DNA of 64,000 nucleotides from Daphnia pulex (taxonomy: Eukaryota; Arthropoda; Branchiopoda; Diplostraca; Daphniidae), in NCBI RefSeq assembly GCF_021134715.1, contig NC_060023.1, positions 11,408,001 through 11,472,000 on the forward strand. Reading direction: 5' to 3'. Positions 1,222 to 29,624 of the stretch are shown here, piece after piece. The notes below the pieces were generated by a model. It was not told the origin of the DNA. It worked only from the letters and a program-made list of their open reading frames with translations, and did no database searches. Position numbers and translations under genes: made by a program. The first letter of the stretch is position 1, and every line of letters starts with the position of its first letter.

Positions 1222-1689
1222 TTAATCGAATTCAAATTGTCTAAAATCATCAAGAAAATCTTGAACGTAGATCACTTCTCGGGAATATGCCATGTCGATG
1301 TGGCCGAATTTCACAAACTTGTTGCTCTCCATCAAACGGGTCATGGCCGGTTCGCCTTCGGGGACGTGATTCCATTCCACCAAGAGTGTCTAATAAAACA
1401 CACAACATTTCAATTTAAAAATATGACGACGCTATTTAACATTTCAGTAGCTACATTCCAATTGCTGCAAACATGTTTTGAATATACAATTGGAAGGTTA
1501 AGAGATGTGTACCTTAAAGTCGACTTTGTGCCAAGGTATGGTTTGCAAGATCTTGTATTCGGAGCCCTCGACGTCCACACCAAAGAAATCAATTTCCGTT
1601 CGGCCAACAGCCACCAGGATGGAGTAGAGTGGGAAACACTGGACTTTGTAGATGGATTCACCATCAGTATTGGCATTATTAACGGATAA
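1222..1689 (-). CDS. FkbM/Star-like methyltransferase, last two exons only (partial or decayed copy)
   Basis: Two minus-strand exons, about 1513-1689 and 1222-1389, are joined by a GT-AG intron and read in frame to a TAA. The first encodes QCFPLYS, GRTEIDFFGVDVEG and EYKILQTIPW, the conserved core of FkbM-type methyltransferases (Methyltransf_21; Drosophila Star belongs to the same superfamily). The second gives EWNHVPEGEPAMTRLMESNK and ends shortly after YVQDFLDDF. Both closely match the complete-looking gene at 28412-29624, including exon boundaries and phase 0. I could not find the SAM-binding exon (FVECGAFDGE in the other copy) in the following 950 bases, so this is a 5'-truncated copy or has distant upstream exons. 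The upstream edge is uncertain: a splice acceptor candidate lies at 1690, but the frame stays open to about 1740. Confidence 0.6.
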
Positions 1690-2691
1690 CTGTTGATTTT
1701 GATTGTCGTCTACAATGAAACTTTTTCGATAGATGTCGCATATTATATATATTTAGTAAGATAATTATTTTAATTGGGGAAATATAATCGTTTAGTTTAC
1801 GATATTAATATTAAAGGATGCCAAAAATCAGAGCGATCAGACTCTAAAATTAAACATTAGTTTAAACCATATGAACGAGACTTATTTCAAAAGAGTAGCT
1901 GTTAAGATAAGAAATGAAAGACTTTTGATTTTTGAACGATACCGCTAAGGACTTTTTCACGTTTAGTGGTTATACCTTGTTGCCACTACATGGCATCACG
2001 CTGTATTGCCTCACCACGGATACACCCTTGCCACTCGTTTGGCATAATACCGCTATAAAAATTTGTCAGCGCTATAGTTGAATGAAAGTAGTGCAATTCT
2101 ATATCTACTTATATTCTTTCGTTTCTAGTTGGCAATAAACAACTTGGGTTCGAAATGATCCTGATCCCAAATCGACTCCTTTCTGAAATAAAGCGTGATA
2201 TGATCTGAATTTCGTAATAATCAATATTTTGGTTGACGAGCAACTGACAAGTTAATTATTAGTGAATTCAAATCCTATCACGAAAGGTTTAACGCACAAA
2301 GCTCTTACATAATAAGAGATGAATACAAGAAAAAGTCCTACTAATATAAATCATGTAACTTGCCAATAAGGTCCTCACGGTAACAATAACTGTGGGTTAA
2401 TTTAAAAGCATATTACACAAGATAACGTTAGGCCCTGTGGGCCATCATCAGTCATTTTTTCTAACAGATTTTCAAGGTTTTCCTCCACGCAGGATCTCGT
2501 AGGATCGTGAACAATAAAACGGCTGACATTAACAATTTTACATGGTGAGATCTCCAATAGGAGTACTGTACATACCCTAATAAGAGGATTATATATTAAG
2601 TAGATGCGGAGCACTATCTATACCTTCCTTATTTGAAATGATTTAACTCGAACTACGAAATCTTTCAGTTTATTTCTCATACCACAACGCA
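1690..2691. other. Noncoding stretch
   Basis: AT-rich sequence with no long open frame I can support. It lies between the partial methyltransferase and the first PC-esterase gene. An acceptor-like tract followed by a short minus-strand open segment near 2140-2190 resembles nothing convincingly. Confidence 0.5.
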
Positions 2692-4076
2692 TTAATAATT
2701 AAAATACATTTTTGAATTGCAAATGTCATTGTAAAAGAGCTGAGTGGCTTGCGACAGGGCGACGTAACCCGTGTGTATGTAGTCGAGGCAATTAATGAAG
2801 GGCTTGCAGTTGATGAAAGGATCCTTGCCATTTTTGATGAAAAACGGATTGGGATATTCGCGTTCCGCATTCATTTGACAGCTGCGGACGTACTCCTCCG
2901 CCAGCGGATTGCTCGAGTCCCAGATCCGGATGCTCTTATAATTCCTGTTACGCACCAAGATTAATTTGGTTCAAACGTTATTAAGTAAAAAAAAATATTT
3001 TTAAAACTTGTATTCACGCCGAACAGCTTGGTTGTACTGAGAAATCTTTTGGGCGTGAATGTCCGTATTTTTGGCATCCATATCTCCGTAGAGTTCCACG
3101 GTGGGATATTGATTCATCCAAATCACTCGACTGACTTTAGCCAATTGGCCCAGGATCGGAGCGAAATTTCGAATTGTTTTTTGGTACTGCTGGAAATCGG
3201 CACCGTATTCTTGCATCATGCTATATATTTCCATACCTGTTCAATCGTGTTATTTGCTAATTTGATTTTTGAACACCAAATGATAATACACACTTAATAA
3301 AATCAAATTGGGGCGCCGATCGGATGCCGTCCAGCTTCGTATCATCTCGACGACGGTGTCGTTGATGATGGGCCTCCATTTGAAAGAGACTCGCAGCCTG
3401 AGGACACTGCTGTCAACATCGACGTCACCGTGGTGAAAAGGAACGACATTACGAGGGATTTCCATGGGCTGTGTTATTCGATCGTAGTCTGGAATAAGCT
3501 GAATAGTGCAGATAAACCGGAAATTATTTTACTGGCCGCACCGATATTTTACACAGCTATACTTAAGCTAATAACACCTTTAAAAAATAGAAAAACTGTT
3601 GTCGCATTCTCGAATCACCCATGAAGACAAAGTGCAGTTTTGGAAATTTCATGTTGACATTTTGGGTATTGACTTGATGACTGAGATAATCGAAACACGT
3701 CACCGCTCGTTTGGCGGTATATTCTAATAGCCGGCAGGAATAGCGCGGATGTGTTTTGGACACTAGGCGGCTGCTGTGACTTGTTCTAGCCCAATTGACG
3801 TAATGGTAGTCACGTTGATCCAGTAAATTACCGACACAGATGGGAAGTTCCGGCAATCCCGATTTCCTGAAATAATTTCCGTTCTTGAAAACTAATAACT
3901 AATTTGTAATTGCGCAATTCTTTCTCGTCTTACTTTGACGATTTAAAATCGGTAGTCATGATTTCACTTTCTCCTTTGAAGACGTAAGTTAATATTGAAA
4001 ATAAACAACATAAAATAACATAGGAGAGGAGTGAGTAAATCAGAAACGCCAACGGGCGACGAATTAACTTTCGCAT
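2692..4076 (-). CDS. CASD1-like PC-esterase domain protein A (type II membrane)
   Basis: Five minus-strand exons: 3934-4076, 3578-3866, 3294-3498, 3008-3236 and 2692-2944, all GT-AG, giving 372 residues. The N-terminus has a short basic tail and a membrane anchor (about residues 9-33, FLIYSLLSYVILCCLFSILT), as in Golgi type II proteins. The SGNH/PC-esterase signature GDS (131-133, in FMGDSRMRQQFF) and the catalytic DxxH (D343, H346, in CLDYIHTG) are both present. This family (PF13839) includes the acyl-transfer domain of CASD1, which O-acetylates sialic acid, and plant TBL xylan acetyltransferases, so sugar O-acetylation or de-acetylation in the Golgi is a fair inference. The substrate cannot be read from the sequence. 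The ten-TM part of CASD1 is absent. It is divergently paired with gene B, the two start codons lying 477 bases apart. Confidence 0.9.
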
Positions 4077-4553
4077 TTCAATAATAAAATCCCATTTTCA
4101 TTTTGGTTGCCACATTTTTTAACAGTACAAATTAAAGTGAAGTAACACAAAACACAATTAAATTTCCCACTTATATCATTCGGGTTATAAAATCTATATA
4201 TAGCCTTGGGGAATAAGGAAGTGTCAAGCCAAAAATAATTCCCGAATTTCCCACACCCGATAGCGACGACAAGAACACGCACACGCTACAGACTAGGAAG
4301 GCTCGTGATGACTGTTTGGCTATCCGTTTAATCTTGAAATCTGTGTTGCTGGTGAAAGCTTGATGGCCTCCAAGGAAGTTTACATTCCTTAAGGCTATAA
4401 CTTAATGCATACGAGAGAAACACAGATACTTATAAATAATGCTCAATTCTCTGGGCGAATTCATTCAGCAGAGGCACATTCCGCTGATTTACTCTATATA
4501 TGGCTTATTATTATAATAGATAATTCATTTACGAATTTCTTAAGAAAATTAAC
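4077..4553. promoter_or_regulatory. Shared upstream region of divergent PC-esterase genes A and B
   Basis: The two start codons point away from each other across these 477 bases, so the promoters of both genes must lie here or overlap the first exons. TATA-like strings (TATATATAGCC near 4193, CTATATATGGC near 4493) are present, but I cannot assign a start site. Confidence 0.4.
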
Positions 4554-6112
4554 ATGATAGAAAATTTAATTCTCTTAATACTGACTGAGCTGAAAATGAT
4601 ACCGAATTACTTGTTTCTCAAATGCTTATTGATTTCGTACTTGATGATTGATTTAAAGGGGATGGGGGTATTTCGTCACTCGGGGTGAGTTAATCAATAA
4701 ACTGAAGACTATCAAAAGCCAACGATATTAGCCAATCAGCCGAAAATTGTGCCTTGATTCGACTACTGTTAGTTCCACGTCATTGTAGTATTTTAAAAAA
4801 TTAACAAAGTCATAAATGTTTACCGTATTGCAGGACAGCTGGGTCGCCAGCACAAGACCCAATGGAATTGATGCCCGTCTGCGTCGGTAATAATTTGCTC
4901 GATAAACGTGAGTATCTCTACGACAAATCGAACGGAATATTTTACAACTCCGTTGGGACGGATTCAACAATAAAGCCAGCAGCAGCTCGTGATGGGCTGC
5001 GCCCGTGTCGCCTGCTGAAATACACGGCCGAACTAGCGGTCACTTGTATCGACACTCTTTATTACCAGCATCGTCACGTTCGAAATCATTCTAATAACGA
5101 TGATGCCAATAACCATGAGACAACCACACCTAACGAATTGCATTTCGTCTTCATGGGCGATTCGAGAATTCGCCAACAGTTCTTCCATTTCGTGGAGGTT
5201 GACACTAATATATTGAATGATGGATCAACTATGATATAGTATGCATCAAGTGTTATTATTGATTGGCCATTATTCAGCTCATCCCGGATTACGATCGACA
5301 AGCGTTTCTAGCATACAATCAAATCAACGAAAACACATTCAATCACGTCGACGTCGACTGGTGGAGTAGCATGCTCAAATTGCGAGTCTCCTTTAAATGG
5401 CAACCTCTGATCAACGACGACGTCATGGAGATGTTTCGCCAATGGGCGGCGGAAGAACAAACGCATAAACCTTACTTGATTTTTTTAAGTATTATATGTA
5501 GAGCAGGCGATGATTTGATTATTTTATGACGTACGCTTGGCCAGGTCTTGGAAGCCACCACATGTTGGCCGGCAATGGGAACGACCATCATCTCTTCCGG
5601 AAGAAGCTGAGCGAACTTGGCCCAACCATGGGACAGTTGGCCAAATCCAGCCAAGTAATTTGGCTTAATCAATATCCAATCGTGGAATTGTATGGGCCAA
5701 CGCTGGGACACAGCACGGATATTCATTCGGCCAAAGTTCACCGATACAACGAAATCTCACGTCAAACGCTACAGTAAAATTTAGATTTGATATTTTGGAA
5801 TAATTGTCTCTTAATTAATGAATGATAGAGCGTCCACTATTTTATAGGAATTACAGTGGCATCCGCATTTGGGATTCCGGTAATCCATTGGCGGAGGAAT
5901 ACATTCGAAGTTGCATTATTTTCCCCCAACGCGATGGACACCATTCATTTGATTTAGAAATAGACGATCCGTTTAATCCCATCGTTAGCAAACCCTACGT
6001 CAACTGTCTGGATTTCATACACACAGGGTCTGTAGCCCTAGCGCAAGCCACTCAGATATTGTACAATGGCATTTGCAACGCCGAAATGTACAGTGACTAT
6101 GTGCAACATTAA
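4554..6112 (+). CDS. CASD1-like PC-esterase domain protein B
   Basis: Five plus-strand exons: 4554-4684, 4834-5197, 5278-5488, 5545-5773 and 5848-6112, giving 399 residues. Intron positions and phases equal those of gene A, and exon 4 is 229 bases in both. GDS lies at 152-154 (FMGDSRIRQQFF) and DxxH at D367/H370 (CLDFIHTG). The first exon was chosen because its GG|GTGAGT donor gives the phase needed by exon 2. It encodes a moderately hydrophobic N-terminus (LFLKCLLISYLMI) that could be a signal anchor, and this is the least certain part. The later exons share strings such as RVSFKW, NQYP.VELYG and IRIWDS with gene A, so the pair arose by inverted duplication. Likely a Golgi enzyme acting on O-acyl groups of glycans; substrate unknown. 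Confidence 0.88.
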
Positions 6113-6459
6113 ATAAGAGAGTCTGTGTGTATAAACGCTGTCAAGCCTATCGTATTCTTCTTGTAGTGAATATATTCAGTGTGTTTGTTTTGTTTTGTGT
6201 TTTTGGCCGAGGAGGAATAAGCCACTCCCAATACAAAAAGGTAAAAACCGGTTCTTTTTTCCCATTGGTCGGTTTATTTTATACCTGAACTATTTACAAA
6301 ACTATATACGCGAAGAAAGTGAAAAAGAAACAGGTTTTTTTTTTCGTAGGAAAGAAGCTTGGGAAGAAGGCAGCAAGTGAAGTAGCTTATTTTTACTTAT
6401 CTCAGCTTATAGGCCAAATTATTTTTAAGTAAATGTCAATTAAATTGTTAACCGTTAAA
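6113..6459. other. Short intergenic stretch
   Basis: I see no gene here. A 61-codon open frame at 6195-6380 has low-complexity Phe/Lys/Arg composition and no splice or family support. Confidence 0.5.
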
Positions 6460-7564
6460 ATGAATTCACTCTCAACACAGTTTTGGAGAACAGATCATTT
6501 TCAGTTTATTTTGACTTTGACAGCTGTGACATTAAGTGCCCTGATATTAATATCAGCGTTCTATTCCAAAGGTAATAAAACTCAACCAAAATAACACGTA
6601 ACACAACCAAAATTAAAAATTTCCTGAAGGCATCAATAGGGCAGAAACTTCGTCGTCAAAAGTTCCACGTCGTCTGGATATTTTCTTTGTCGAGACTTCA
6701 GGTAAATCGTGTCTCACCTTCCGCCAGGCGTGCGGAATCGAGTCGGCCGCCAAGGCTAATCCCGACGCCAAAATCAAATTGTACACGGAAAAAACTGGAA
6801 TGAATTTGCCGGAAAACGACCAGCACCGGGAATTCTTCCGCTGCCCCGTCACCAGCGTTTTGCTCGAGCAAATGAACAACATTGAAATCGTTCGTGAAAA
6901 TTTGGTCGAGCTCTTGGAAGAGACGCCGCTGTGGCAGCTGCACAAAACCGGTTCGTTCAACCGGTCCAGCTGGAGGCTCTTTCACCTGAGTGACGCAACT
7001 CGGGTGGCCCTGCTCTGGAAGAAAGGCGGCACCTATCTCGACATGGACTGCATCGTCTTGCGCCCGTTGGAGAGTCTCAACAACACGATCGGCACGGTGG
7101 AAAACGGCAACGTGCCCAGCTGGGTGGAAAACGGGGTGATGGCCTTCTCGGCTGGCCACCCGTTTCTCCACTTTCTCATGAAGTATATGGTGCTGGCCTT
7201 CGAGCCGGATAATTACATCAGCCTCGGCCCAGACACTCTACGCGACGCCATGTTTTATTTTTGCAATCGTGAAACTTTGCCGGCCAATCACTGGGTCAAC
7301 TGTCGGCACAATTCTTCAATATTTATCCAGCCGCCGGAATCGTTTTACGCCATTAATAATAGTCGAATGGAAACTTTTTATCAGCCGGAATTCGATCCGA
7401 ATGATTGGGATCTATTGCATCGCGATAGTTTTCTGTCGCATATTTATGGCGCCGGTCACGGGCGAATCGCTCCGCCCGGATCACTTTACGCAGAGTTGGC
7501 CAGGAAATACTGTCCAGTGAGTTATGCAATGGCAACTGCTGGCGGAGCTAATGGTCTTTTTTAA
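6460..7564 (+). CDS. Alpha-1,4-glycosyltransferase, A4GALT-like (two exons)
   Basis: Exon 1 (6460-6571) encodes a short cytosolic tail and a membrane anchor (FILTLTAVTLSALILISAFY). Exon 2 (6630-7564) carries the catalytic domain; total 348 residues. Family marks are IFFVETSG followed by FRQACGIESAAKANP, then WRLFHLSDATRVALLWKKGG and the metal-binding DXD as TYLDMDCIVLRPL (Asp at about 175 and 177). The C-terminal HIYGAGHG..PPGSLYAELA matches the Gb3-synthase C-terminal domain. Vertebrate relatives make Gal-alpha-1,4-Gal on lactosylceramide or alpha-1,4-GlcNAc; the arthropod sugar specificity is not predictable. It is a Golgi type II enzyme. The intron is only 58 bases. A candidate poly(A) signal (AATAAA) lies about 95 bases after the stop. 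Confidence 0.92.
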
Positions 7565-9721: not shown

Positions 9722-11078
9722 ATGGCAACCAGTCGACAAATCAGACGGTGGATTTTCGTGAGTCGTTCACGAACCGTCGTCCGAGTTTTTCTTTCATGTC
9801 TAGTGTGCTCTTTCACTTTGGTTTATTTTGTGACTTTCTCGGATAACTTTGAAAACACTTCAAATTGGGAAAATAAGAATTTAATACTCTCACACCAAGT
9901 CAAACAAAGAAATCTGAAATCAGCGACATTTCTGGCTCAAATCAAAAATGAGAAAAGTTACCAGTTGAAACCTAACGATAGTCGATCGCCACTTTACGTT
10001 AAAAAGAAATTCAGAGATTTGTGTTCTTTCGTTTCTCCTTTATTAGGTAAGAATCATTTCTAGTCCAACCAGTAAATGAATTAACTTGTCAATTGCGGTG
10101 ATAAAGTTGGATGGACGGACATCTCGTTGATGGCATCCGCCAGTCGCCAGGAAAGCGAAGAGACATTCAACTCGAGAATGTCAACTGCTGGACTGAAATT
10201 CGGCGGCAGGTTTAAACCGAGTGATTGTAAAGCTCGAAATAAAGTGGCCATCGTTGTCCCTTATCGAGATAGAAAATTTCATTTGAAAATATTCTTACGT
10301 TACATGCATCCCTTCCTGCAACGACAACAACTTGAATACGCCATCGTCGTCGTAGAGCAATCGGGTCAGTTTTAATTCTTATATGCAAATTGGATCTTGA
10401 ATTATAATGCGCTTAAATAATATCAGACGATTTGCCGTTTAATCGCGGACTGCTTATGAATATCGGCTTCAAAGAAGCCCAGAAACAGGATCGCTTTCAA
10501 TGTTTCATCTTTCACGACGTCGATCTACTTCCGGAAGATGATGGCAACACTTACGCTTGTCCGGAAGTAGGAAAACCTCGACAAATGGCCTTCTCCATCG
10601 ACATTTATGACTACAAGTACTATTCTATTTTTATTTATCATCACCAAATTAAATTCATTCGTTATTTACTCGGTTATTTAATAGGCCAACGCCCATCGAT
10701 CATTTCGGAGGTGTCAGTGCGTTTTCAACTTCCGATTTCCGACGAGTCAACGGTTTCTCGAACGTATTTTTTGGTTGGGGCAGTGAAGACGACGATTTGT
10801 ACCGGCGTTTACTACACCACAACCTGACCGTGACGCGGATAAATAATCTCAACACCAGCACTATTGTCCGCTATAGAATGTTTGACCATCCGGTAGCTGA
10901 ACCCAATCCGGATCGGATGCGGTTGTTTGACCAAGGAACTAGGCGACTCGAGTCCGATGGGCTGGTCGATCTGAGATACCGTCGACTTTCAGTGAAATTC
11001 AAACCGCTTTACACCCACATTATTGTTGATGTTCAACCTCAAATGCATAAAACCCAAAAGTTATCAGACTCAAAATGA
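9722..11078 (+). CDS. Beta-1,4-galactosyltransferase (B4GALT family, GT7)
   Basis: Four exons (9722-10046, 10107-10364, 10427-10616, 10685-11078) encode 388 residues. A signal anchor (about 21-39, VFLSCLVCSFTLVYFVTF) is followed by a stem and the GT7 domain. Landmarks in order are VPYRDR, FNRGLLMNIGF (199-209), the DXD-type DVD (225-227, in HDVDLLP), FGGVSAFS (265-272), NGFSN, and GWGSEDDD (288-295), where most family members have GWGGEDDD. These bind UDP-galactose, Mn and the acceptor GlcNAc, so transfer of galactose (or GalNAc, as for many arthropod members) to GlcNAc in the Golgi is expected. The Gly to Ser change in GWGSEDDD and the Tyr/Ile choice at the donor pocket would need structural comparison. 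It converges on the next gene with only 106 bases between stops. Confidence 0.94.
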
Positions 11079-11184: not shown

Positions 11185-12472
11185 TTAGCAAAAATTCATC
11201 CCGGATGTTATTACGTAAGTAGGTGGGCGACATCGTTGGGGACATTCGTCCAAATCGCTGAGTTGTTCTGTAATGAATTTAGGACCCAAGGATCTGGAAC
11301 CCACAAAAGTGCGATCTCTTCTCTGTTTCGGAAACGGTTGGGTGTTCCGGTATACCTCGCAGCAGTAGCTATCGTGAGCAATCTAATCCACCGGAATTAA
11401 AACGGATGTGTCAGTTTAACAGACAAATGCTTTTATTTGACAAAATTACCGAATTGTTCTCTGCTATGGGCCAAATGAGCTCATCCAATAGAATCTGATC
11501 GTAATCATACTTGTGCGAATGGTTAGCTCTAAACATTTTCTCAGCCGCAAGGACGATCCTGGTACGATCCTGGCTGACTTTCACTCCCCAGCAGCCTGTT
11601 GGGAACAAATACTAAGTAACCGCTACTAATTCAATTAGGTAATAGATTTAAACTTACACCCCATAATAAACCCAAAGAAACAGTGGGCTGGATGGTCTCT
11701 CATGATGTGGAAGGATTTGTTGCTAGCCAGCCACTCACCTACGGCTTCTTCTTCACGAGATGTTATCGCACTGTCGGAATCCCTTGACATAAGCGTGTCC
11801 ACCATTTCATCAAGTAGAGGTAACTGTGAAAAAATAATCCTTAAAAAAATAATCTCATGACGTATGAAGTTGTTCTATAGAGAATGAATTAATTACCCAA
11901 CGCCAAGTCATGGCAAATAAATCGCCTAAATTTCTCATCCGAATAATTTCCGTTGCGTTGCACAAATCGACGTGATCTTCACTGAATAACTTGAGGTCGT
12001 CGTCACTTGTTAAGTTGTGATAAATCCTCACAATCCAACCTAAAGAAAAATTTATTAATATAAACTCTAACGTCTTTATCTACGTGAATATGTTACCTGG
12101 ATAGATCGAGGGAATTAAATTGATCGTTCTTTTCAAAGGCGATAAATATTTGTCAAAAGCATCTGCCTTAGAGAAATCTCCGTAAAGAGAATACGAAATG
12201 ACTTTTTGGTGAGGGCCTCTCCTATCGGCAGCGCTGCTACAAGTTGAATTGTACGAATAATCATGACCTAATAGTAATCTGTTGCTTTGACGAATCAACG
12301 GTGTGTCTTGCAGGTAATATTTGAAATAATAATTACCAACTACCGAGTTGGGTAGTTGGAGTTGTTTGATTTTGGGGTGATACAGTGAAATGAGAACAAA
12401 GAGGCTCACGGAAACTAAAATAATTAAAAATAAGAAATTGCACCGGTAGGTGCACCATTTCACGCTACCCAT
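11185..12472 (-). CDS. Glycosyltransferase-like type II membrane protein with RDSD/RDHP motifs
   Basis: Five minus-strand exons: 12097-12472, 11897-12039, 11658-11823, 11450-11595 and 11185-11382; 342 residues. The anchor is FLFLIILVSVSLFVLISLY (about 14-32). The lumenal part contains VISYSLYGD, YPGWIVRIYHN, SRDSDSAITSREEEAVGEWL (RDSD 187-190), FHIMRDHPAH (RDHPAH 215-220) and a C-terminal Cys-rich tail. I know this set of motifs from uncharacterised bacterial and animal proteins that resemble nucleotide-sugar transferases, where RDSD plays the role of a DXD. I do not recognise a named family. The start is the first ATG and gives a proper anchor. It faces the B4GALT gene tail to tail. Confidence 0.8.
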
Positions 12473-12839: not shown

Positions 12840-14040
12840 TAAATTCTAATCGATATCTTAAGCTTAAGTATTGCTAATTAGAATATCAGTGTCATCAGTG
12901 TCGTCTGCTTTATTTTAGAAGTATACAAGTTACAAGCACAAACAAGGCATCATAATTGATACAAGTTTCGAAAAGGAAACTCTATTATAAACGGAACTAT
13001 CACGTTTTTGGTCGTGGGTGCACGAAAATAAAATAACAAAAATGTGGTCATCGTCATGTGAAACGCAGCCATCCATGCTCCTCTCCACTCCAGCATGCTG
13101 TTTGGCGGGTAAATACTCACAATGAAAATGGGATGACTAATTTGGAAGCCAGAATCGCCAGAATCTAGAAGAGGTATACTTCTTCCAAGTTTGTGAATTG
13201 ATACTTCCTGACTAGCATTATTTATCCCCTTGTCGATACATGGCAGTTTCTTCACACTAAATGTAACCTTTTCCTCTGTGCAGATTTGAGGCCTGAGCCA
13301 GCCATCGTAACAGTAAAGTTTTGCTTGTGTTGGAATTTCAGTCATATGATTTGACCGATGACCTCCTGCCATCAGCAATAATAATCACAGTATCATCCCT
13401 CAGGTAATAATTTTCGTTACTTTTATTACCTGCATGCCGCCTGCCAGATTTTGTGATTATGCATGACTTGCAGTGTATTCCATGGAAACCTTCAATTCTC
13501 CTGTTTAATAACAATTAGGGTATAACCCTGGTACACAACTACTGTCTTATTTTCAACTTTCCTTGCTATTGTTATTTTTACTGTAAATATTTTTTCGTAA
13601 CCCATTGTTGAAATCTCTTATTTAGATAAACAGCATCTCATCTAATTGGAGAAACTTCTAGAGTCGACCAAGTTAAGGATCTCTTCAATTCCCCTTTATC
13701 TAATGTCCTCGTGTACTCCCATGTGAGTGTGGGTGTATTCACGAGGACTCCCGTTTTCCCGCCTGGGGGATTCAACTTTTCTTCGGATGGAGGAGCACTT
13801 GTGGATGCCTGGCTGTATTTCCCAGGCATAAAGGTAGGAAAAATTCATTTCTATCTTTCCTTTCTGACTGTTGATTGAGTGGCGTTTATTATTAACTGAT
13901 TCCTGGGCCATGCATGCAGTTGGCTGAAACTGTTTTCCCTTGCCCTTATTTGTTTTTCTCAGTCAGGGTTCATTCAATAGCACACGTGTAGAACCACTGC
14001 AGATCAGGCCTGTTTTTGTACCCCGCAACTTTATCTGTTG
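12840..14040 (-). repeat. Dispersed ~1.1 kb repeat, copy 2 (minus orientation)
   Basis: Read on the minus strand, this copy shares ordered blocks with copy 3 from its first end (GCCTGATCTGCAG near 14000-14015, then GAACCCTGACTGAGAAA near 13963-13976) through the hairpin (13705-13748) and the GCCTCAAATCTGC block (near 13280-13292) to TTCTAATTAGCAATACTTAA near 12865-12884, which it shares with copy 1. It is the longest of the three and defines an element of about 1.2 kb. No protein is evident; the open frames across the hairpin are not kept over the full element. It lies between the RDSD gene and PC-esterase gene C. Confidence 0.75.
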
Positions 14041-14254: not shown

Positions 14255-15612
14255 CTACATTACTGATTCACATATGTGATTAATAATAAGTTGGGTGCCT
14301 ATGGATAACGCTGCCATTCCTGGGTGGATTGTATCGTGGCAATTGACGTACCTCGGGGGATCTCGGCGGTCGTACCTCGCCAAGGCGCACCCCCGAAGGT
14401 ATTCCTCGACAACGGCGTTCACAGAATCCCAAATCACTATTCTTGTATCTCTGTAAAAATAAGGATCCTGAGTGCCATACAATTTCAGCTAAAGTTTTAT
14501 TATTGCATAGACCTGAATATGCGATGCATCACTTTGTTGTACATAATAATCGTTTCGGCATCTATTTCACGACTGAACCGGTCCGCACCGGTCGGACTCT
14601 GACGTAACCAGACAATCTCCAGGTGAGGATGAACTGTCAAAGTTTGGTTGATTAAAGGCATCAGATCTCTCTCCATCAGGGTCTCGTACATTTCTAGTGA
14701 ACTGTTGACATTTGTCCTGCTAACATGATGGGCCGTAACTCCTGTTAGGAGAATTTAAAAAAATGCGCGAAAAAAAAATTCAAATCAGTAACGAATTAAT
14801 TAGTTAACACAACCCACCAAGGAGAATAAAATCTGGCACGTGGCTGTCGTCGTTTGTTGAGGCCCAACGCTTGAAATCGGCAATCAAATCATCTTTGATG
14901 ACATTGCGCCAGTAGAAAGAAACGCGCAAGTCGTGTAAAAGCCAACTCGTCACATTGCGATCCTCGTGAAAGTGATAGAACCCCGACTTGGTGATACTGT
15001 GCACCATCTTCCTATCGTGATCGGGAACGCGCTGTTGTGTAATTAATTTAAAAAAAAAATTAATTTCTTGATTTAATCATACTAAGGGCAATAAGGAAAA
15101 TACTAGCCTGGAGAAAACTAAAGAAATGTTGGCGAATGGTCGAGTCGCCAATAAATGCGATATGGATCGGTCGCCAGTTTCTTTGTTCCGCCATGGAATC
15201 CAGGCAGCGGACGACATCTTCCGTCGTGTATTCCCGAAGCGCTCGATTTCTATTAACAGTGACGTAGCTAACGTGATCGCTTCTGATGTCGAGAAATTGT
15301 CGCTTCAAATAATTGTCTCCGTGACGGTATTTAACGGCAGTGGAAATTAAATTCGTCGGTAAACTTAAACTTTGATTTGTCGTGAATTTCCAGCTTAAAT
15401 GTTCCTTTACCACGATGAGTGCAATCAAAATGAATAAAATTGATTTCAGAATAACCCTGTGAAAATTGGATACCAAGCTAAATTTTGGACATTTGGCTGT
15501 ATAAGTACATATCATATTCTTGTTACCTTAGGCTCTTGGGCTTTATCCCATTTTTAGAGCAATAACATCTAAGTTTACACCACTCGTTTTCACTCGAAAC
15601 CGCGTCTAACAT
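14255..15612 (-). CDS. CASD1-like PC-esterase domain protein C (with a GC-AG intron)
   Basis: Five minus-strand exons: 15527-15612, 15108-15456, 14818-15031, 14513-14741 and 14255-14450; 357 residues. Exon 1 gives a cytosolic tail and exon 2 opens with the anchor SILFILIALIVV. GDS is at 132-134 (FIGDSTIRQHFF) and DxxH at D332/H335 (CHDTIHPGM). The chosen first exon (MLDAVSS start) fits by AAG|GTAACA..TTTTCACAG and phase; a shorter single-exon start at 15515 also exists. The exon 2/3 junction reads CTCCAG|GCTAGT, a GC rather than GT donor, at the position where genes A, B and D have GT. Exon 4 is again 229 bases. LLGVTAHH is the mid-domain block. Probably a Golgi sugar O-acyl enzyme, substrate unknown. 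Confidence 0.87.
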
Positions 15613-15844: not shown

Positions 15845-17144
15845 TTATTCGCATATGTGGTTAATAATGAGCTGTGTGCCTATCGATAATGCCCCCATTC
15901 CTGGATGGATGAAATCTTTGCAGTTCAGGTATCCGTTGTCGACTCGCTCGTGATCGGTGTTTTCGTTGTCTCGGCGCTCGTCTCTGGTCAGAGCACAGCC
16001 TCGAAGGTATTCCTCGACTATGAGATTAATCGTCTCCCACATCATCACTCGAGTGTCTCTGCAATGATTACCGTATTAGTTTTGTTTCGATTTGATTAAC
16101 GTAACACGCGGAGAGATAAGCAAATGAAGGAAAATAACTGAGAAATAGTACTTCAAGATAAGGCGAACGGCGTTGTTGTACATCCGAATGGTTTCGGGAT
16201 AAAAACCGCGATTGACTCGGTCCATGCTGGTGAGACTCTGGAGCAGCCAGACAATCTCCTGGCGAGGATGGACAGTCAGACTTTGATTGATGAGCGGCAT
16301 CAGTTGCTTTTCCAAAAGCTTCTCGTACGTCCGGAAACTGTCTGCGATTGTACTCCGATTGTTTTGGTCGATGTGATGGGCAGTTACTCCTGTTTATGAT
16401 GTAGAACGCCATTTGAGAAATAATAATTGATTATTAATTATCCACATAAATCTACCGAGGAGAATGAAATCTGGCGCTTGGCTGTCGTCGTCGGTTGATG
16501 CCCAGCGCTTGAAATCGGCAATCAAATCATCTTTGATGAGGTCACGCCAGTAGAAAGAAATGCGCAGATTGTCAAACAACCAACTCGTCACATTGCGATC
16601 CTCGTGATAATGGAACGGGTACCAGACATTTGAATACCTTTCAATTCTCCTATCAAAGTCCGGAATCAGCTAATAGCAAAAACATATTATAGACATTTTT
16701 TTAAAAAAGAAAAGCTATTTTAAAAATTGAATTAACCCTTAAAAACATGACGTAATGTTGACGAATCGTCGAGTCGCCAATAAATGCGATATGGAACGAT
16801 CGCCGGTTTCTCTTGGCCGATAGAGAATCCAAACAGCGGACAACATCTTGTGGTGTGAATTCACGAACTAATTGTCGCCGATTCCGGTTGAACGATGGGA
16901 CTGCTGGCCCATTGTTGGTTTCCACTTCTCTGTCAATGATGAAACTGATTCCGTCGCTGTTTAGCTGGAAGGAATGTCGATTGAAATAATTCTGAGCGTT
17001 TCGACAGCAATCAGCGGCAACGGATGAAGAACTTTCTCTGTCAAATTCAATTGATATTGGCGAATGCCGGCCACAAAGTTGATTGCAGCTGTCTGTCTCT
17101 TGCGAAGCGATGAACACTGTCATTACAATTACTAGTAAATGCAT
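15845..17144 (-). CDS. CASD1-like PC-esterase domain protein D (cleavable signal or short anchor)
   Basis: Four minus-strand exons: 16737-17144, 16456-16669, 16152-16389 and 15845-16058; 357 residues, the same length as its tandem neighbour C. The N-terminus (LLVIVMTVFIASQE) looks like a signal peptide or very short anchor, with no separate first exon seen. GDS lies at 123-125 (FIGDSTIRQHYV) and DxxH at D335/H338 (CKDFIHPGM). DLIADFKRWAST and VTAHH are shared with C. The usual WDS in the last exon is WET here; it is not a catalytic residue. Only 232 bases separate it from gene C on the same strand, so the pair is a tandem duplicate. The different N-terminus may mean that D is secreted while A-C are anchored. 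Confidence 0.87.
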
Positions 17145-18266: not shown

Positions 18267-19505
18267 TTAATTGAAATCGGCTGCTCTACTAACGGTCAGT
18301 GGGCAATGCTCTCTGGCCAGAATGGCCACAATTTGATTTTTATTATCTACATTAATCGGGTGGTGCAAAGAAATGGAATTCCACAAGTGGAGGCCGAAGC
18401 TTTCCTTGATTTCGAATAGCGTTTCAACATCGCTCATGTTGCCGTCATTTTGAAACAGCATGTGCGAAAACATGGCCGCCACTGGATGGAAGTAGCGATG
18501 AGACAAGAGTCGGACGTTGTTGCACTCGTTCGATTTCGGATTTCCCGCCACCAGACCGCAGACGCGGTTCATAATTTCAGCGATGGCATCCGGCCCGTGA
18601 TAGACGTAAGCTTCCGGATCGTATTCTTCCGCCAGCAATCGAATTAATTCACCGCTCAAATGGTGGCCGCGCTCCAGGTGCAGTACACTGTTGCCTATGG
18701 TGTCCTTGGCGGCGTTCTCGTAGACCAAACAGTTTCGAAACACGGGGCCCTGGAAGGCCTTCAGGGTCAGGATGTCCATGTCCAGGTAGAGTCCGCCACC
18801 TTTGTAGAGCGTCAAGACGCGGATGTAGTCGGACAGGTGTCCCATCTCGAACCGGCTCGTACGCCACACTCCCTTGGTGTACCAGTCTTCCAACGGTGTT
18901 GCAGCAAAGTAGTGGTCTTCGTTCAACAAGACAATTTCCACGTTAGGATATCGAGATAGAACTTTGAGCCAGGATGGATTAATGGGTAATTGCTGGGAAT
19001 GTATTGGGTCGGTGCTGGCGCAGTTTGTTGACGACCGCATCAGCAGGTGGACGGGACGGTCGGGATTATTTCTGGCCGCCGATTCGACGGCACAGCATTG
19101 CCTCAGACTCAGTTGGCTGCGCCCGCTTGTTTCGTGGAAAAAGATGCGCTGATCCGAAATGTTTCGAGACGTTCCGTCGTACATTCTCCACTCTTCCGGA
19201 TGGATATCTGGTTTGATGACGAGGCCGTCAGCTTTTGGTCGTTTAATGGCTACATGATTGTGAGCGCAAAATAATGTTCCGTGTGGTTCATCTTTTGGCG
19301 GATGCGGGTCCGGTAGCTTCCGGCTGAAATACACGAAAAATATTAAAATGAGGCCTAGTTGGAAATAGATGAAATATTTCCGCCGCTTTTTGGACAGGAA
19401 GCGTTGATTCACACATTTGCCCAGGGCGAATTCCATGTGTCTTAAAATAATAAACGTCGGAGAAGAGCGGAAGCGTTTGTCGAGACTTGCAACTTGAAGT
19501 TGCAT
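18267..19505 (-). CDS. Alpha-1,4-glycosyltransferase, A4GALT-like (intronless coding region)
   Basis: A single 412-residue open frame. The membrane anchor is at about 44-60 (YFIYFQLGLILIFFVYF). Family marks are IFFHETSGRSQLSLRQCCAV, ESAARNNPD, FEMGHLSDYIRVLTLYKGGG and the DXD in LYLDMDI (Asp 242 and 244). The Gb3-synthase-type end includes SFGLHLWNSISLHH. Length and order match the family. A second in-frame ATG at 19436 sits right behind an acceptor-like TTATTATTTTAAG, so the real start may be there after a 5' UTR intron. Unlike the copy at 6460-7564 the catalytic region has no intron and the sequence is quite divergent, so this is an old paralogue or a retrocopy rather than a recent duplicate. 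Golgi enzyme; sugar specificity unknown. Confidence 0.92.
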   Translation of the reverse strand: MQLQVASLDKRFRSSPTFIILRHMEFALGKCVNQRFLSKKRRKYFIYFQLGLILIFFVYFSRKLPDPHPPKDEPHGTLFCAHNHVAIKRPKADGLVIKPDIHPEEWRMYDGTSRNISDQRIFFHETSGRSQLSLRQCCAVESAARNNPDRPVHLLMRSSTNCASTDPIHSQQLPINPSWLKVLSRYPNVEIVLLNEDHYFAATPLEDWYTKGVWRTSRFEMGHLSDYIRVLTLYKGGGLYLDMDILTLKAFQGPVFRNCLVYENAAKDTIGNSVLHLERGHHLSGELIRLLAEEYDPEAYVYHGPDAIAEIMNRVCGLVAGNPKSNECNNVRLLSHRYFHPVAAMFSHMLFQNDGNMSDVETLFEIKESFGLHLWNSISLHHPINVDNKNQIVAILAREHCPLTVSRAADFN

Positions 19506-19801: not shown

Positions 19802-21322
19802 ATGGCGATAGCTAAACAGTTGACGATTTATTTGTGCCTAGTTGTGTTCGCTTTATCCGTTATTTTGATTCATTCTTTCTACATTAGTGATTATCAGTCG
19901 TACAAGAAACAATTGATTTCGTTTTCTTCTTTCAATCGCACCTGGAAATCGGTTTCAAAAAAGGTCTTAAATAATACCAGCATTTGATTATTTCACTCAA
20001 CCAAAATTAATTAGCATACGTGGCTACATAGTTAGCCACACCCTTTTTTCTAGCATCAAAACGGGTTGGATTCTGACACGTCTCCATTTCTGAAAGTTGA
20101 ATGCTTTTTTAAAAATAATTCATTTTTGTTTTATTTACAGGAAGTACAGGAAATGTATGCCAATAATGCTTTGAGATCGAAAGCTGACCATCATGTCGCT
20201 AAAGAGGAAACAGATTCAGACCATCTACTTACAACAACACCCAATAACACGACCGCTAACGAGTCGCCACTGAAAATCATTTTAATGTGGAATGCCTGGA
20301 CCAATCACATAGCCGATAAGCCTCTAGTCAAGGGACAATGTCCCGTCAAATCTTGTCTTTTCACGACCGACATGTCGCTGATGCAGCAAAGTGACGTCGT
20401 TGTCCTTCACTTTGACACGCTGGAAGACTACCCGGTCAATCGCCAGCCGCACCAGCGATTCGTTTTCTACCATTTCGAGTCTCCGGATAACACCGCGTCG
20501 GAATTAATGAACGATTCCAACTTCCGCTACGATTATTTCAATTGGACCATGACTTATCGGCGGGACTCGGACATTTACCTGCGTGATTATTACGGCTCCC
20601 TTATTGCCAAGGCCTCCATTAAGAATAATTCTCGTGAAATGAGATACAATTACGGAAATCTGACGAATAATAATTACAACGACCAGATTATTCCTGACGC
20701 CATTCATATTCTCCCCGGTATGGAATTAGTGAAAACGGATTTGAATTTTACCGCTCTGATTCGTGGCAAGAGTAAAATGGTGACGTGGTTTGTTGGACAC
20801 TGCACGACGCCCATCCGGCGTGAAGAGTACGTCCGCCAGTTGAGCCAGTACGTTCCGGTCGACATTTACGGCAATTGCACCCAAGATTGCCCGTACCACT
20901 GCGACGAAATGTTGCGCGCCGAATACAAATTCTACTTGGCCTTTGAAAATTCCTGGTGTCCGGATTACGTGACTGAAAAGTTCATCCGGCCTTATGTTTA
21001 TGACGCCATCCCCATCTTCCTCGGCGGTGCCGATTACAGTCAGTTCGCCCCGCCGCATTCTTACATCAACGCCAGAGATTTTCATTCGCCAAAAGAATTG
21101 GCTGATTATTTGATTCTGTTGGACAAGTCGGACGATCTGTACGCCCGTTACTTTGATTGGAAAAGAGACTATTACGTTTCTGTTCCTGATTATTACGGAT
21201 GGTGTGAATTATGTCGAATGGCTCACGATAATACTCTGCCGATCAAAGTGTATCACGACATCAAGCAGTGGTGGATGTTGGATGCCGGAGAATGCGAATC
21301 CAATTCAACCAAATATTTTTGA
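19802..21322 (+). CDS. Alpha-1,3-fucosyltransferase (GT10)
   Basis: Exons 19802-19963 and 20141-21322 encode 447 residues. The anchor is IYLCLVVFALSVILIHSFYI (about 9-28), followed by a long stem rich in Thr/Asn and then the GT10 domain. Diagnostic blocks are the acceptor-side FVFYHFESP (161-169), DYFNWTMTYRRDSD (185-198) and the GDP-fucose motif YKFYLAFENSWCPDYVTEKF (316-335) with the following RPYVYDAIPIFLGG. A paired-Cys end (CELC) closes the domain. These enzymes add fucose to GlcNAc of Lewis-type chains or to the chitobiose core. FucT-A (core) and FucT-C types cannot be separated by eye. I chose the ATG at 19802, which gives the cleanest anchor; no earlier ATG is in frame. Confidence 0.94.
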
Positions 21323-22607: not shown

Positions 22608-23654
22608 ATGGGAAAACTGAAAAACCGGATTGGTTTGTTGGTGATTGCAATAGCATTTCTTTTCACAATTGTTGTTCTTGCTTTGAATTTCTGGACCTCA
22701 GAATGCTATTATTCCAGGAATGAATTGGATGAGTCTAGTCGAGTCAAAAATTGGATTAAAACATATGGCTGGCCTGCAGTGCTGTCGTCTAGATCCTTGT
22801 TGGGGAATCAACTTTTCTCCAGTGACAAGACGAACAACAAGAAAGCGCAGGATATCGTCGAAGATGGGCCAGTTTTCGCATCCGTCAGTGTGGCTGATTG
22901 GCAAAAGACGGATGTCCAGACGCTTTCAAAACAACAAATTCATGATTATCTTTTGTGGACTAACCAGTCGTCCTGTCAAATTTCTCAATCCTTTGGTGGT
23001 TTTCTAGTTTCATCTGCCAACGGTCTCCTGGTATCGTTCGACGGACAAAAAGCCGTTTGCCTGGATCAGGCAGTCGCCCCACCACCCAACAAATGCCTCG
23101 TTTATTCGTTCGGAATCAACAACGATTGGAGTTTCGACGAAGCCATGGAACTCTACGGATGCCAAATTTTCTCTTTCGATCCGTCCATGAACGTTTCAAA
23201 TCACAACCGAACGGAGGCCATCCATTTTTATCAAATGGCGCTTGATGACGTCGACAAGGACGAATGGAACAAGAGCAAGAGCATTCCGTCACGAACGCTG
23301 GCCTCCATTTACGACATGCTGAATTCTCTGCATGGCGGCGACTCATCCGTCATCGACTATCTTAAAATTGATGTGGAAACGACCGAGTGGCGAGTCTTGC
23401 CTCAAATCATTGAATCGGGGATGATGGACAAGGTGAGGCAGTTGGCCGTGGAGATCCATCTGGACTGCGACAAGTCCATTAGACACTGCCGACAGCAAGC
23501 CGGAATTCTCCAGTCGCTGGAAGGCTACGGAATGGTCCGCTTTGATTCCAAACCCAACATGTATAGCAAGTCGATTATGAATAATGACTCGGTTTTCAAT
23601 AGTTATGAAATTGCGTGGTACAATAACCGACTAGTTCGCGGTCTACGGCTGTAA
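22608..23654 (+). CDS. METTL24-like methyltransferase, copy 1 (Methyltransf_22)
   Basis: A single coding exon of 348 residues. The N-terminal anchor is GLLVIAIAFLFTIVVLALNF (9-28). The methyltransferase part has CLVYSFGINNDWSFDEAM (163-180), GCQIFSFDPSM (184-194) and DYLKIDVETTEWRVLPQI (248-265), the hallmarks of the METTL24/Methyltransf_22 group, where the FDP motif would hold SAM and the KIDVE block is the family's second landmark. Members are membrane-anchored and face the secretory lumen. Their substrates are unknown; given the neighbours, O-methylation of a glycan is a tempting inference, not a fact. DVETTEW replaces the DIEGDEW seen in copy 2 at 52927-53949. Confidence 0.88.
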   Translation: MGKLKNRIGLLVIAIAFLFTIVVLALNFWTSECYYSRNELDESSRVKNWIKTYGWPAVLSSRSLLGNQLFSSDKTNNKKAQDIVEDGPVFASVSVADWQKTDVQTLSKQQIHDYLLWTNQSSCQISQSFGGFLVSSANGLLVSFDGQKAVCLDQAVAPPPNKCLVYSFGINNDWSFDEAMELYGCQIFSFDPSMNVSNHNRTEAIHFYQMALDDVDKDEWNKSKSIPSRTLASIYDMLNSLHGGDSSVIDYLKIDVETTEWRVLPQIIESGMMDKVRQLAVEIHLDCDKSIRHCRQQAGILQSLEGYGMVRFDSKPNMYSKSIMNNDSVFNSYEIAWYNNRLVRGLRL

Positions 23655-25561: not shown

Positions 25562-25650
25562 AGCCTCGAGACAGATTTCTTTTTATTAATTATTTTTAGA
25601 ATTTTTTAGCCTCGAGACAGATTTCTTTTATTAATTATTTTAAGAATTTA
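25562..25650. repeat. 46-base tandem duplication
   Basis: Two near-identical units begin AGCCTCGAGACAGATTTCTT at 25562 and 25608 and continue TATTAATTATTTT. The second unit differs by small length changes in T runs, so the duplication looks recent. It lies in the region between the THAP and sulfotransferase genes. Confidence 0.8.
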
Positions 25651-25900
25651 AATAAGTGCAGTCGATACAAAGCCACAAATTTGTTCCTTCCATCGCTACT
25701 TATACGTATTTTCCCCTTTGAAGGACAACTAAACTCTGACAATTCTCTGACAAATTGGTTGGCATAAAGACTTCGCCGTTAAGTGCAAATTTAATTTGTT
25801 GCTCATCCAAAGACGTTTTACGGCTACATCAAGCCAATAGTAGTATTTATATCCCGCACTAGTGTCTCTAATCAAGAAGATACAAGTATCAGTGAGCAAA

Positions 25901-27171: not shown

Positions 27172-28411
27172 TTAAAGTCATAGAACGCAACGAAGTAAAA
27201 TCGTTTAAATTGTTTCTTTATGGGGAAAGTCCAGTAATAGTTTCGATGTATTTATATACTCATTTACAAGCGTGTATCTTTTTGCCAGATTATAATAAAT
27301 ATAAGACCGTTCGTTACGTCAAGACTTGACGAGCAACTGCATGTAGGATACGTTATCAATTCACCATCAAGATTCGACGATCCTCATCAGCCGCGTCACA
27401 CCGATGGTCATAGATATACGCTCTATTACTCTAGAACGAATGGCTGGGGCGCGGTTGAAAGAAACAAAAAAAACCGCTTAGAAATTTTGGGTCAGGCGTT
27501 TGTATATGGGGTTGTGGTTCGATTTTAAAAGTTACTTTTGGTAGACGAGAGCTCTAGAATTTAACTAAATAAGGGTGACGTGACCAACGTATGTGTTTTG
27601 ACACGTTAAAACGAAACAAAATTCTACTAAAATTTATGTGCTGTTATTAAAAATGAACCGAATAAGTACACTCGTAGTTGTCGGTCCTTCGTAGTGCATG
27701 AAGAATTTTCGTAGCCCTTCCCCTTTGCTGCTTTTGGGAGACGATATTGAGGAGATAAGTAGGACTGTAGGGAAATAGGCCCTTCATCTTCGGTGCTTAA
27801 ATCAAAAGCGCTAGATCTCTTCTAAACTTGGTAGATTGAGGTTAAAAGCGACCTCAAAATTCACGTCTTACGTAATCTTTAAGCTTAAAGGTCTCGCCAA
27901 ATTTGACATTGCTTTCAAAAAATATGCAAAAGTATTGCATGAGTCGCCATTGCACACGGTTACATTTAGTGATTTCCACCGTTTCTGTCGTTTGTGTCTT
28001 TTCTATTATCTTCAATTCGACGACTACGATGATGGACAGTTTACAAAACACCCCACAAGTAAGATTGTGAATCCGTCGACTAAACTATAACAGAAGAATT
28101 CCGAATTGAAAGTTTCGTATTCTTAATTGATAACTCTCGCTCTCTTTCAAATAAGTATGTGATTCTTTTTTCAATAATTAGTTACAATCTCATCACGCAA
28201 CTTACGAACCAAAAACAAAATACAACCTGATGGAAGAGTCATACGGGAAAAAATGGAAACACGCTTCTGAAAAATATTACGATCCTGAGAGTTGTACAGT
28301 CGGTATATTATATGGATGAAATGCTCAAGATATTTTCTTTGATTTTGTACTAATAGTAGTGCTGATGACAACAGCAATCAACGATATAGAATTCATTTCA
28401 TGACTTTTCAG
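27172..28411. other. Region upstream of the FkbM-like gene, with a candidate 5' exon
   Basis: A plus-strand open segment ends at a good donor at 28058 (CCACA|GTAAGA context: ACA A|GTAAGA). Its phase (1) fits the exon starting at 28412, and it encodes LCLFYYLQFDDYDDGQF, so it may be the upstream exon of the next gene. I could not find a start codon or a clear membrane anchor. The rest is AT-rich with no supported gene. Confidence 0.4.
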
Positions 28412-29624
28412 AATTCGCAAATGCGCAAAAATTGCAGCAGGATCATCCGTGTGTTCTCCAACTGATACAAGATATTTATGTACGTCAGCCATCTCCTAGA
28501 AACATCCCCTATAAACTTGTTGAACCTGAGTTAGTTGATCCCTCCGATGGACAATCCAAGGGAATCCTGCGACTTTTGCGCAATCATGTAAATATAAATA
28601 GCTGAGCCGGGCTCTATAAATATCACAACTTAAGTTTTCAATGAAACCCGAACTAATCCCCTGTCTGTCATATCCTCAACGAAATCGGGATTCAATCCAA
28701 CAATCGCGACAAAAAATGTGCTGCCGTTATTTTCAGACGAATGGCTTTTTTGTCGAGTGTGGTGCTTTTGACGGTGAATACCTTTCCAATACGTTATACA
28801 TGGAGCGATCGCTTAATTGGACTGGCCTATTGATTGAAGCCGATCAAAATGCTTTTCATAAACTTTCATCCCGTAACCGGAAAGCTTATACAACACCAGT
28901 TTGTCTGAGTACGAAACCATATCCTATTCAAGTAAGAGATAAGCTAAGTTACCAAATAAATTAAAATCATTTTGAAATAAAATTCCTGTCTTATTCACAG
29001 GTATTGTATAATACATCTGATTCACTTTATAGTGCTATCGTCGAGAAAGATGGTGATAATAAACCTGAACACGAGAGTAGCAGTCAAAATGAAGATACTT
29101 TAACAGTTAATACCACAGCAAATATTCACAAAAAACAATGTTTCCCTCTCTACTCCCTACTGCTCGCCATTGGCAGAACTGAAATTGATTATTTCAGTTT
29201 AGATGTCGAAGGTTTCGAGTACAAAATATTACAGACTATCCCTTGGCTCAAAGTCGGCATTAAGGTCAAATTTATGTTCTAATTCAGCCTCATTTTTAAA
29301 CTTATAAGTGATTTGCATTTAAGAATTAAGACCAATAAGATTTCGTATTAGCTCTTAAAAAAATTATTTGAATTACGAAAAATCCGTGGCCCGTATTCAC
29401 TTTTTAAAATATTTATTACAACTAACGTTTATACTCGCATTTAATCACACGCTTTTTATTACCAGACGTTAACTGTGGAGTGGAATCACGCACCTGAAGG
29501 TGAAGCTGCCATAACTCGTTTGATGGAAAGCAACAAATTCGTCAAGTTCGGTCATATTGAAATGTCATTTTCACGCGATGTTGTTTACGTGCAAGATTTT
29601 CTTAACGACCTTAGACTCTATTAA
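28412..29624 (+). CDS. FkbM/Star-like methyltransferase (5' end uncertain)
   Basis: Four plus-strand exons are clear: 28412-28587, 28737-28931, 29001-29264 and 29466-29624. They encode, in order, CVLQLIQDIYVRQPSPRN and DPSDGQSKGILRLLRN; the SAM-binding NGFFVECGAFDGEYLSNTLY with WTGLLIEAD; QCFPLYSLLLAIGRTEIDYF and DVEGFEYKILQTIPW; and EWNHAPEGEAAITRLMES to the stop. This is the Methyltransf_21 (FkbM) fold found in Drosophila Star-like proteins and in bacterial sugar O-methyltransferases. The first exon listed starts in phase 2, so at least one exon lies upstream (candidate ending at 28058). Star itself is an ER/Golgi protein of EGFR ligand traffic; whether this one is an enzyme is open, but the glycine-rich ECGAFDGE motif is intact. 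The truncated copy at 1222-1689 shares its last two exons. Confidence 0.82.

What the first reader, a model, noticed from the sequence alone, without database searches (positions are those of the whole stretch)
1222..29624. A dense cluster of glycan-building and glycan-capping genes
Within 29 kb there are at least twelve genes or partial genes for secretory-pathway, mostly type II membrane proteins: B4GALT, two A4GALT-like, one GT10 fucosyltransferase, an RDSD-motif transferase-like protein, four PC-esterases, one WSCD-like sulfotransferase, one METTL24-like and two FkbM-like methyltransferases. Only a THAP gene interrupts them. Glycan enzymes are not normally grouped in animals. The combination of chain extension with sulfation, O-acylation and possible O-methylation suggests an undescribed, locally clustered glycan-decoration system. 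The domains are seen directly; the joint function is inference.
Basis: partly seen in the sequence, partly recalled or inferred. Interest (0 to 1): 0.85.

Follow-up and report, generated by a model that had tools for sequence, protein, structure and literature searches.

The report
Second Daphnia glycan-gene island
This stretch of a water-flea genome packs together genes that build and cap sugar chains; it is one of about sixteen such islands, one of which matches a region that in a related water flea decides which bacterial parasites can attach, so it is real and interesting but belongs to a known kind of locus.

Summary
The cluster is real: 13 glycan-enzyme genes (one truncated) and one THAP gene in 28 kb, continuing upstream of the window. 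It is not unique. In this genome (probably Daphnia pulex), loci of seven of its enzyme families fall into 16 mixed islands with at least three families (shuffle mean 0.7-0.8). With the window and the richest other island masked, 14 remain (mean 0.5, maximum 3). Trypsins lie in none of the islands. The richest other island lies beside sestrin, calcipressin and a MutS gene, so it is the orthologue of the D. magna Pasteuria Resistance Complex. The window is therefore a second, unlinked island of a known kind. Related genes are not sorted by island, so islands share or exchange members. C. elegans has mixed glycoclusters too, so "not normally grouped" and "undescribed" are too strong. The joint function, varying the terminal glycans that parasites bind, is inference: no expression, glycan or population data were available. 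PC-esterase and sulfotransferase calls rest on motifs and marginal profiles. The RDSD protein, without a named family, also sits in phage glycan gene clusters and is probably an uncatalogued glycosyltransferase; its structure could not be predicted.

The parts
1222..1709 (-). FkbM1: truncated 3' copy of an FkbM-type methyltransferase gene
   Evidence: 66% identical to FkbM2 over its C-terminal part; N-terminal exons absent
2695..4076 (-). PCE1: PC-esterase-like gene
   Evidence: models and exons; GDSRMRQ and DYIH; marginal NXPE4_C
4838..6109 (+). PCE2: PC-esterase-like gene, N-terminus uncertain
   Evidence: no Pfam hit
6433..7564 (+). A4G1: A4GALT-like glycosyltransferase
   Evidence: PF04572, PF04488, YLDMD
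9722..11078 (+). B4GALT-like glycosyltransferase
   Evidence: PF13733, PF02709
11411..12472 (-). RDSD: type II protein of unnamed family, probable glycosyltransferase
12900..14000 (.). dispersed repeat holding the open frame X13; not counted as a gene
14255..15456 (-). PCE3: PC-esterase-like gene
   Evidence: GDSTIRQ and DTIH
15848..17123 (-). PCE4: PC-esterase-like gene, recent copy on C8
   Evidence: GDSTIRQ and DFIH; marginal NXPE4_C
18267..19436 (-). A4G2: A4GALT-like glycosyltransferase
   Evidence: PF04488 over cut-off, YLDMD
19802..21322 (+). GT10 alpha-1,3-fucosyltransferase (probable first exon 19802-19984, main exon to 21322)
   Evidence: PF00852, PF17039; nearest solved structure FUT9
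22608..23654 (+). MET1: METTL24-like methyltransferase
   Evidence: PF13383
24136..25325 (+). THAP-domain gene, the one non-glycan gene found inside the cluster
   Evidence: PF05485
25901..27168 (+). WSCD-like sulfotransferase
   Evidence: SFPGSG.T and LLRNP motifs; paralogue near the PF00685 cut-off
27924..29624 (+). FkbM2: FkbM-type methyltransferase
   Evidence: PF05050
52927..53949 (+). MET2: METTL24-like methyltransferase, outlier of the island
   Evidence: PF13383

Best explanation
The window holds a second, unlinked island of the enzyme set that makes up the Pasteuria Resistance Complex of Daphnia. Shown: the genome has 16 mixed islands of seven enzyme families; one other island has all seven and lies beside sestrin, calcipressin and a MutS gene, as the D. 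magna complex does; related genes are mixed between islands. Inferred: the products are Golgi type II enzymes; galactosyl- and fucosyltransferases, and probably the RDSD protein, extend terminal chains, while sulfotransferase, SGNH-type acyl enzymes and methyltransferases cap them. Together they set the outermost sugar epitopes on cuticle and gut-lining glycoproteins. Many divergent linked copies let lineages differ in these epitopes, which parasites that attach to host glycans select for. The islands stay alike because single genes or short cassettes are copied from island to island.
For: Co-location of the seven families, robust to gap size and to masking of the window and the C10 island. 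The C10 island at 15.710-15.761 Mb has seven of seven families beside sestrin, calcipressin and MutS, anchors listed for the D. magna PR-locus. Best hit in the same island for 16 of 51 entries, 15.1 expected if random. Recent interchromosomal copy of PCE4. Same families among D. magna resistance candidates and balancing-selection candidates. Wscd1/2 are sialate O-sulfotransferases in vertebrates (PMC9304399, abstract and outline).
Against: No expression, glycan, population or resistance data for this island. The families were chosen from the window, so its own seven of seven is circular. PC-esterase-like and WSCD-like calls rest on motifs and marginal profiles. GT31 joins in part: 20 of 52 loci near a member, and A4GALT-GT31 co-location was never reached in 1000 shifts. 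Five of the seven families and trypsin, A4GALT most of all, are enriched near ends of C7-C10, which the shuffles do not allow for. Window and C10 islands show no clear common gene order.
Confidence: 0.6

Rival explanations
1. Shared ancestry without shared function: an old multi-family island was copied, broken up and scattered, helped by gene turnover near chromosome ends and repeats. Neighbours are kept by descent, not because their products work together.
For: Paralogues not sorted by island; cassettes and single genes are copied recently; enrichment near chromosome ends, shared by trypsin (24 of 55); a dispersed repeat in three islands.
Against: Trypsin, equally end-enriched, lies in 0 of 16 islands and is not near members above shuffles. 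Recurrent joining of the same unrelated families in islands of different make-up is easier to explain if linkage is kept by selection, but this is an argument, not a test.
Confidence: 0.25
2. A biosynthetic gene cluster: the members act one after another on a single, specific glycan, in operon-like manner.
For: Extension and capping enzymes side by side; RDSD, FkbM and B4GALT-like genes also sit together in phage clusters.
Against: Several copies of the same family per island, mixed strands, and different family sets from island to island.
Confidence: 0.1
3. Ordinary by-product of large families: many copies fall side by side by chance or because gene-dense regions collect all families.
For: Families are large (GT10 92 merged loci) and several are end-enriched. 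Borderline trypsin pairs exist: A4GALT 5 of 43 (48 of 1000 shifts as high) and GT10 10 of 92 (49 of 1000).
Against: Islands 16 against a shuffle mean of 0.73-0.79; trypsin 0 of 82 in islands.
Confidence: 0.05

Closest known systems
Pasteuria Resistance Complex (PR-locus, ABC supergene, F and G loci), Daphnia magna
   Same: Fucosyltransferases, alpha-1,4-glycosyltransferases, galactosyltransferase, PC-esterases, methyltransferase, with WSCD1-like and 9-O-acetyltransferase-like genes in or near it
   Different: The window has no sestrin, calcipressin or MutS neighbourhood found (sestrin only on C10), one fucosyltransferase against seven in the C10 island, and no resistance mapping known to me
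C. elegans glycosylation gene clusters (C13A2, K06H6, T15D6 regions)
   Same: Different GT families with methyltransferases and unknown proteins grouped in the genome; function of the grouping open (PMC7614267, section 17)
   Different: Also sugar transporters and DUFs; no link to parasite resistance in the section read
Phage glycan gene clusters with RDSD genes (L031, L034, L038)
   Same: RDSD beside FkbM (L031, L038), B4GALT-like (L038) and GT1/GT2 genes
   Different: Operon-like phage arrangement; RDSD there has no N-terminal extension with a hydrophobic stretch

Membership tests
Pasteuria Resistance Complex, orthologue | Sestrin, calcipressin and mismatch-repair gene in the region | tested here: not met
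   All 5 sestrin matches lie at C10:15.662-15.665 Mb, with calcipressin and MutS; the window is on C7
Pasteuria Resistance Complex, kind of locus | Linked fucosyl-, alpha-1,4-glycosyl- and galactosyltransferases with PC-esterases and a methyltransferase | tested here: met
   against PMC5340410; PC-esterase by motif
Pasteuria Resistance Complex, kind of locus | Divergent haplotypes, balancing selection, resistance association | not testable with these tools
   One genome, no population or phenotype data
GT10 fucosyltransferase | PF00852 and PF17039 over cut-off | tested here: met
   alpha-1,3-fucosyltransferases among solved relatives
A4GALT-like | PF04488 over cut-off with DxD motif | tested here: met
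   Two of two
B4GALT | PF13733 and PF02709 over cut-off | tested here: met
PC-esterase | Domain profile over cut-off | tested here: not met
   Below cut-off in 2 of 3 window genes scanned, no hit in the third; filed only as PC-esterase-like
PC-esterase | GDS and DxxH catalytic residues (recalled) | tested here: met
   Four of four
WSCD-type sulfotransferase | Sulfotransferase domain over cut-off | tested here: inconclusive
   Of four WSCD-like proteins scanned one reaches 21.6 of 22 bits, three give nothing
FkbM and METTL24-like methyltransferases | PF05050 or PF13383 over cut-off | tested here: met
   FkbM2, MET1, MET2; FkbM1 truncated
RDSD as a glycosyltransferase | Glycosyltransferase fold or activity | not tested
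   Structure prediction busy in nine tries; motif and neighbourhood evidence only
C. elegans-type glycocluster | Co-expression of members | not testable with these tools
   No RNA data

The most novel reading that the evidence does not exclude
Daphnia keeps a dispersed, genome-wide system of about sixteen glycan-variation islands, of which the known resistance complex is only one. The islands trade members, combine chain extension with sulfation, acylation and methylation, and include an uncatalogued glycosyltransferase family (RDSD) and candidates for the unknown animal enzymes that O-methylate glycans.
Probability: 0.35. Interest if true: 0.82.

Novelty: new member of a known kind. Interest (0 to 1): 0.6.

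Why it matters
The Daphnia-Pasteuria system is a leading case of parasite-driven balancing selection, and its candidate genes are glycosyltransferases in one supergene. If the same enzyme set is laid out in about sixteen islands, further resistance loci become predictable from sequence, and sulfation, acylation and methylation join fucosylation as testable variables. The fucose methyltransferase and an alpha-galactosyltransferase of C. elegans N-glycans are unidentified (PMC7614267, passages); the islands offer candidate families in a crustacean.

Tried and rejected
Window as the resistance-complex orthologue: rejected by the anchors. X13 (12953-13372) as a gene: rejected, it lies in a dispersed repeat. 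The Pfam PC-Esterase search of the genome returned nothing anywhere, so window proteins were used, which favours relatives of the window's copies. RDSD in prokaryote genomes: 31 stretches matched a pattern, none confirmed. PDB sequence searches: none for RDSD, chance-like hits for WSCD-like, PC-esterase-like and phage RDSD. First gene-model run undercalled exons; repeated with a coding bonus. Two FkbM loci that are the same genes as METTL24-like hits were dropped before the island counts but are still in the pair table. In one search pieces shorter than 110 residues were dropped, and two adjacent METTL24-like genes upstream of the window count as one entry.
Full report
What is in the interval. 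Gene models, a tblastn map and Pfam scans confirm B4GALT, GT10, METTL24-like, FkbM and THAP genes and one A4GALT-like gene; the second A4GALT-like gene is over the PF04488 cut-off in the own-genome search. Four genes look like PC-esterases: GDS..RQ and DxIH residues are invariant in four of four, but Pfam matches stay below the cut-off. One gene looks like a WSCD sulfotransferase: motifs (recalled) are present, the gene itself has no Pfam hit, and one of three paralogues reaches 21.6 bits against a cut-off of 22 for Sulfotransfer_1. The RDSD protein of the window has no hit in Pfam, NCBIfam, PHROGs or PDB. FkbM1 is a truncated copy. Eleven of 14 models have a hydrophobic stretch near the N-terminus, as type II Golgi enzymes do. 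Among solved structures the GT10 protein is closest to FUT9, which fits a peripheral alpha-1,3-fucosyltransferase.

Where it lies. The window is C7:11408001-11472000 of a 133.19-Mb genome in 13 contigs. Daphnia pulex is an inference: the KAP4 assembly is named in PMC12102780 (passages), its size is recalled. Two METTL24-like, one A4GALT-like and one WSCD-like gene lie just upstream of the window, so the island runs from 11.403 to 11.438 Mb, with an outlier at 11.461 Mb.

Is the grouping more than chance? Seven families were located genome-wide: A4GALT-like, GT10, FkbM, WSCD-like, PC-esterase-like, METTL24-like, RDSD. Matches within 2 kb were merged. Counts are lower bounds, since the tool scores only the best candidates, and three families were searched with the window's own proteins. 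Within-contig circular shifts keep each family's own clustering. For the 42 ordered pairs of the seven families, co-location within 25 kb was 4.5 to 30 times the shuffle mean; 34 of 42 were never reached in 1000 shifts, the other 8 in 1 to 33. Chained at 25 kb, 283 loci give 16 islands with at least three families, holding 129 loci in about 600 kb; shuffle mean 0.79, maximum 4 in 500, or 0.73, maximum 5 in 1000, with true lengths for C7-C10. With gaps of 10 and 50 kb there are 14 and 17 islands against means of 0.2 and 2.0.

Limits and controls. The families were chosen because they are in the window, so its seven of seven is circular. With the window neighbourhood and the C10 region masked, 14 islands remain against a mean of 0.53, maximum 3. 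Trypsin: 0 of 82 loci inside islands and 10 of 82 near a member, not above shuffles (mean 5.2, maximum 17); two trypsin pairs are borderline, A4GALT 5 of 43 and GT10 10 of 92, each reached in 48-49 of 1000 shifts. GT31, another Golgi family, joins in part: 8 of 52 loci inside islands, 20 of 52 near a member (mean 3.8, maximum 13), and A4GALT-GT31 co-location was never reached in 1000 shifts. So the set is not sharply bounded. Several families are enriched within 1 Mb of an end of C7-C10 (A4GALT 19 of 32, GT10 27 of 79, FkbM 9 of 17, WSCD 6 of 12, METTL24-like 12 of 24, PC-esterase-like 14 of 47, RDSD 5 of 29), and so is trypsin (24 of 55), against 15% if uniform; the shuffles do not correct for this, but trypsin shows that end-enrichment alone does not put a family in the islands.

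Relation to a known locus. The D. magna PR-locus carries fucosyltransferases, alpha-1,4-glycosyltransferases, a galactosyltransferase, PC-esterases and a methyltransferase, with sestrin, calcipressin and a mismatch-repair gene (PMC5340410, passages). The adjoining F locus has A4GALT-like and WSCD1-like genes and a fucosyltransferase (PMC9894429, passages); G-locus candidates are an A4GALT-like gene and a fucosyltransferase (PMC11917490, passages). Genes with balancing-selection signals there include a fucosyltransferase, a WSCD1-like sulfotransferase and 9-O-acetyltransferase-like genes (PMC8557431, passages). In the window's genome sestrin is found only at C10:15.66 Mb, with calcipressin and MutS. 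About 44 kb further begins a 53-kb island with 19 genes of the same seven families, seven of them GT10. That is the resistance-complex orthologue; the window island is another one on another contig. A 2024 study of the complex across Cladocera (Naser-Khdour et al.) is not held; I know it by recall and by mentions.

How islands are related. For 51 gene entries of the window, C10 and C7:11.77-11.84 Mb islands, the best match lies in the same island for 16, against 15.1 expected if labels were random: PC-esterase-like 3 of 10, A4GALT-like 0 of 7, METTL24-like 2 of 9, FkbM 3 of 7, WSCD-like 2 of 4, GT10 6 of 9, RDSD 0 of 3, B4GALT 0 of 2. So these three islands were not filled by separate local expansions; they share old lineages or exchange genes. 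Recent copying exists: PCE4 has a copy on C8, 90-93% identical in DNA over 515 and 919 aligned bases, dS 0.11, dN/dS 0.32 over 328 codons less one in-frame stop; its last-exon match lies 5.5 kb away. An FkbM and PC-esterase-like pair occurs twice, 15 kb apart, on C7.

RDSD. Of 30 merged loci 22 lie near another of the seven families. Relatives were found in 8 viral contigs; five were read. Scanned neighbours are FkbM in L031 and L038, B4GALT-like in L038, and GT2 with GT1-like domains in L031 and L034 (GT1 in L031 below cut-off). Neighbours in L035 and L037 were not scanned. One of four phage relatives has a weak hit to an unnamed PHROG (E 0.0057), three have none. The core RDxDS ... RExxAV ... 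FHxM.DHP is shared by four phage and two Daphnia proteins. Of 6 annotated phage records with a match, 2 are unannotated, 2 hypothetical, 2 under a SPINDLY-type O-GlcNAc transferase. I infer a glycosyltransferase; no structure could be predicted.

Novelty. C. elegans has mixed glycosylation gene clusters of open meaning (PMC7614267, section 17); glycosylation terms are expanded across Daphnia (PMC12102780, passages). No paper on multi-family glycan islands outside the resistance complex came up in the searches, which cover only the held library and of which I saw listings. I rate the window a new member of a known kind; the genome-wide layout is the more novel part.

Noticed in passing
G000 genome: Very large GT10 fucosyltransferase family: 135 exon-level matches merging to 92 loci.
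   Followed up: partly
window 11411-12472; L031-L038: RDSD family in Daphnia, phages and 21 plasmid-collection records, among them Azospirillum, Acinetobacter and Acaryochloris; candidate new glycosyltransferase family.
   Followed up: partly
window 1-1000, 12900-14000, 61003-61407: Dispersed repeat of about 1 kb, also in two other islands; enrichment in islands not tested.
   Followed up: partly
L029 (C8:3463501-3465800): Recent copy of PCE4 on another contig with one in-frame stop; last exon match 5.5 kb away.
   Followed up: partly
L027-L028 (C7:11.8209-11.8394 Mb): FkbM and PC-esterase-like pair present twice about 15 kb apart.
   Followed up: partly
G000 C2:10.976/10.991 and 11.170/11.185 Mb: PC-esterase-like matches repeated at an exact 194-kb offset with equal scores: recent duplication or assembly duplicate.
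   Followed up: no
window 34350-35231: Copia-type gag open frame (PF14223).
   Followed up: no
window 38641-39642 and 55876-57907: Tyrosine/threonine-rich repeat frame and collagen-like frames.
   Followed up: no
G000 C7-C10: Trypsin loci are also enriched near contig ends (24 of 55 within 1 Mb).
   Followed up: no
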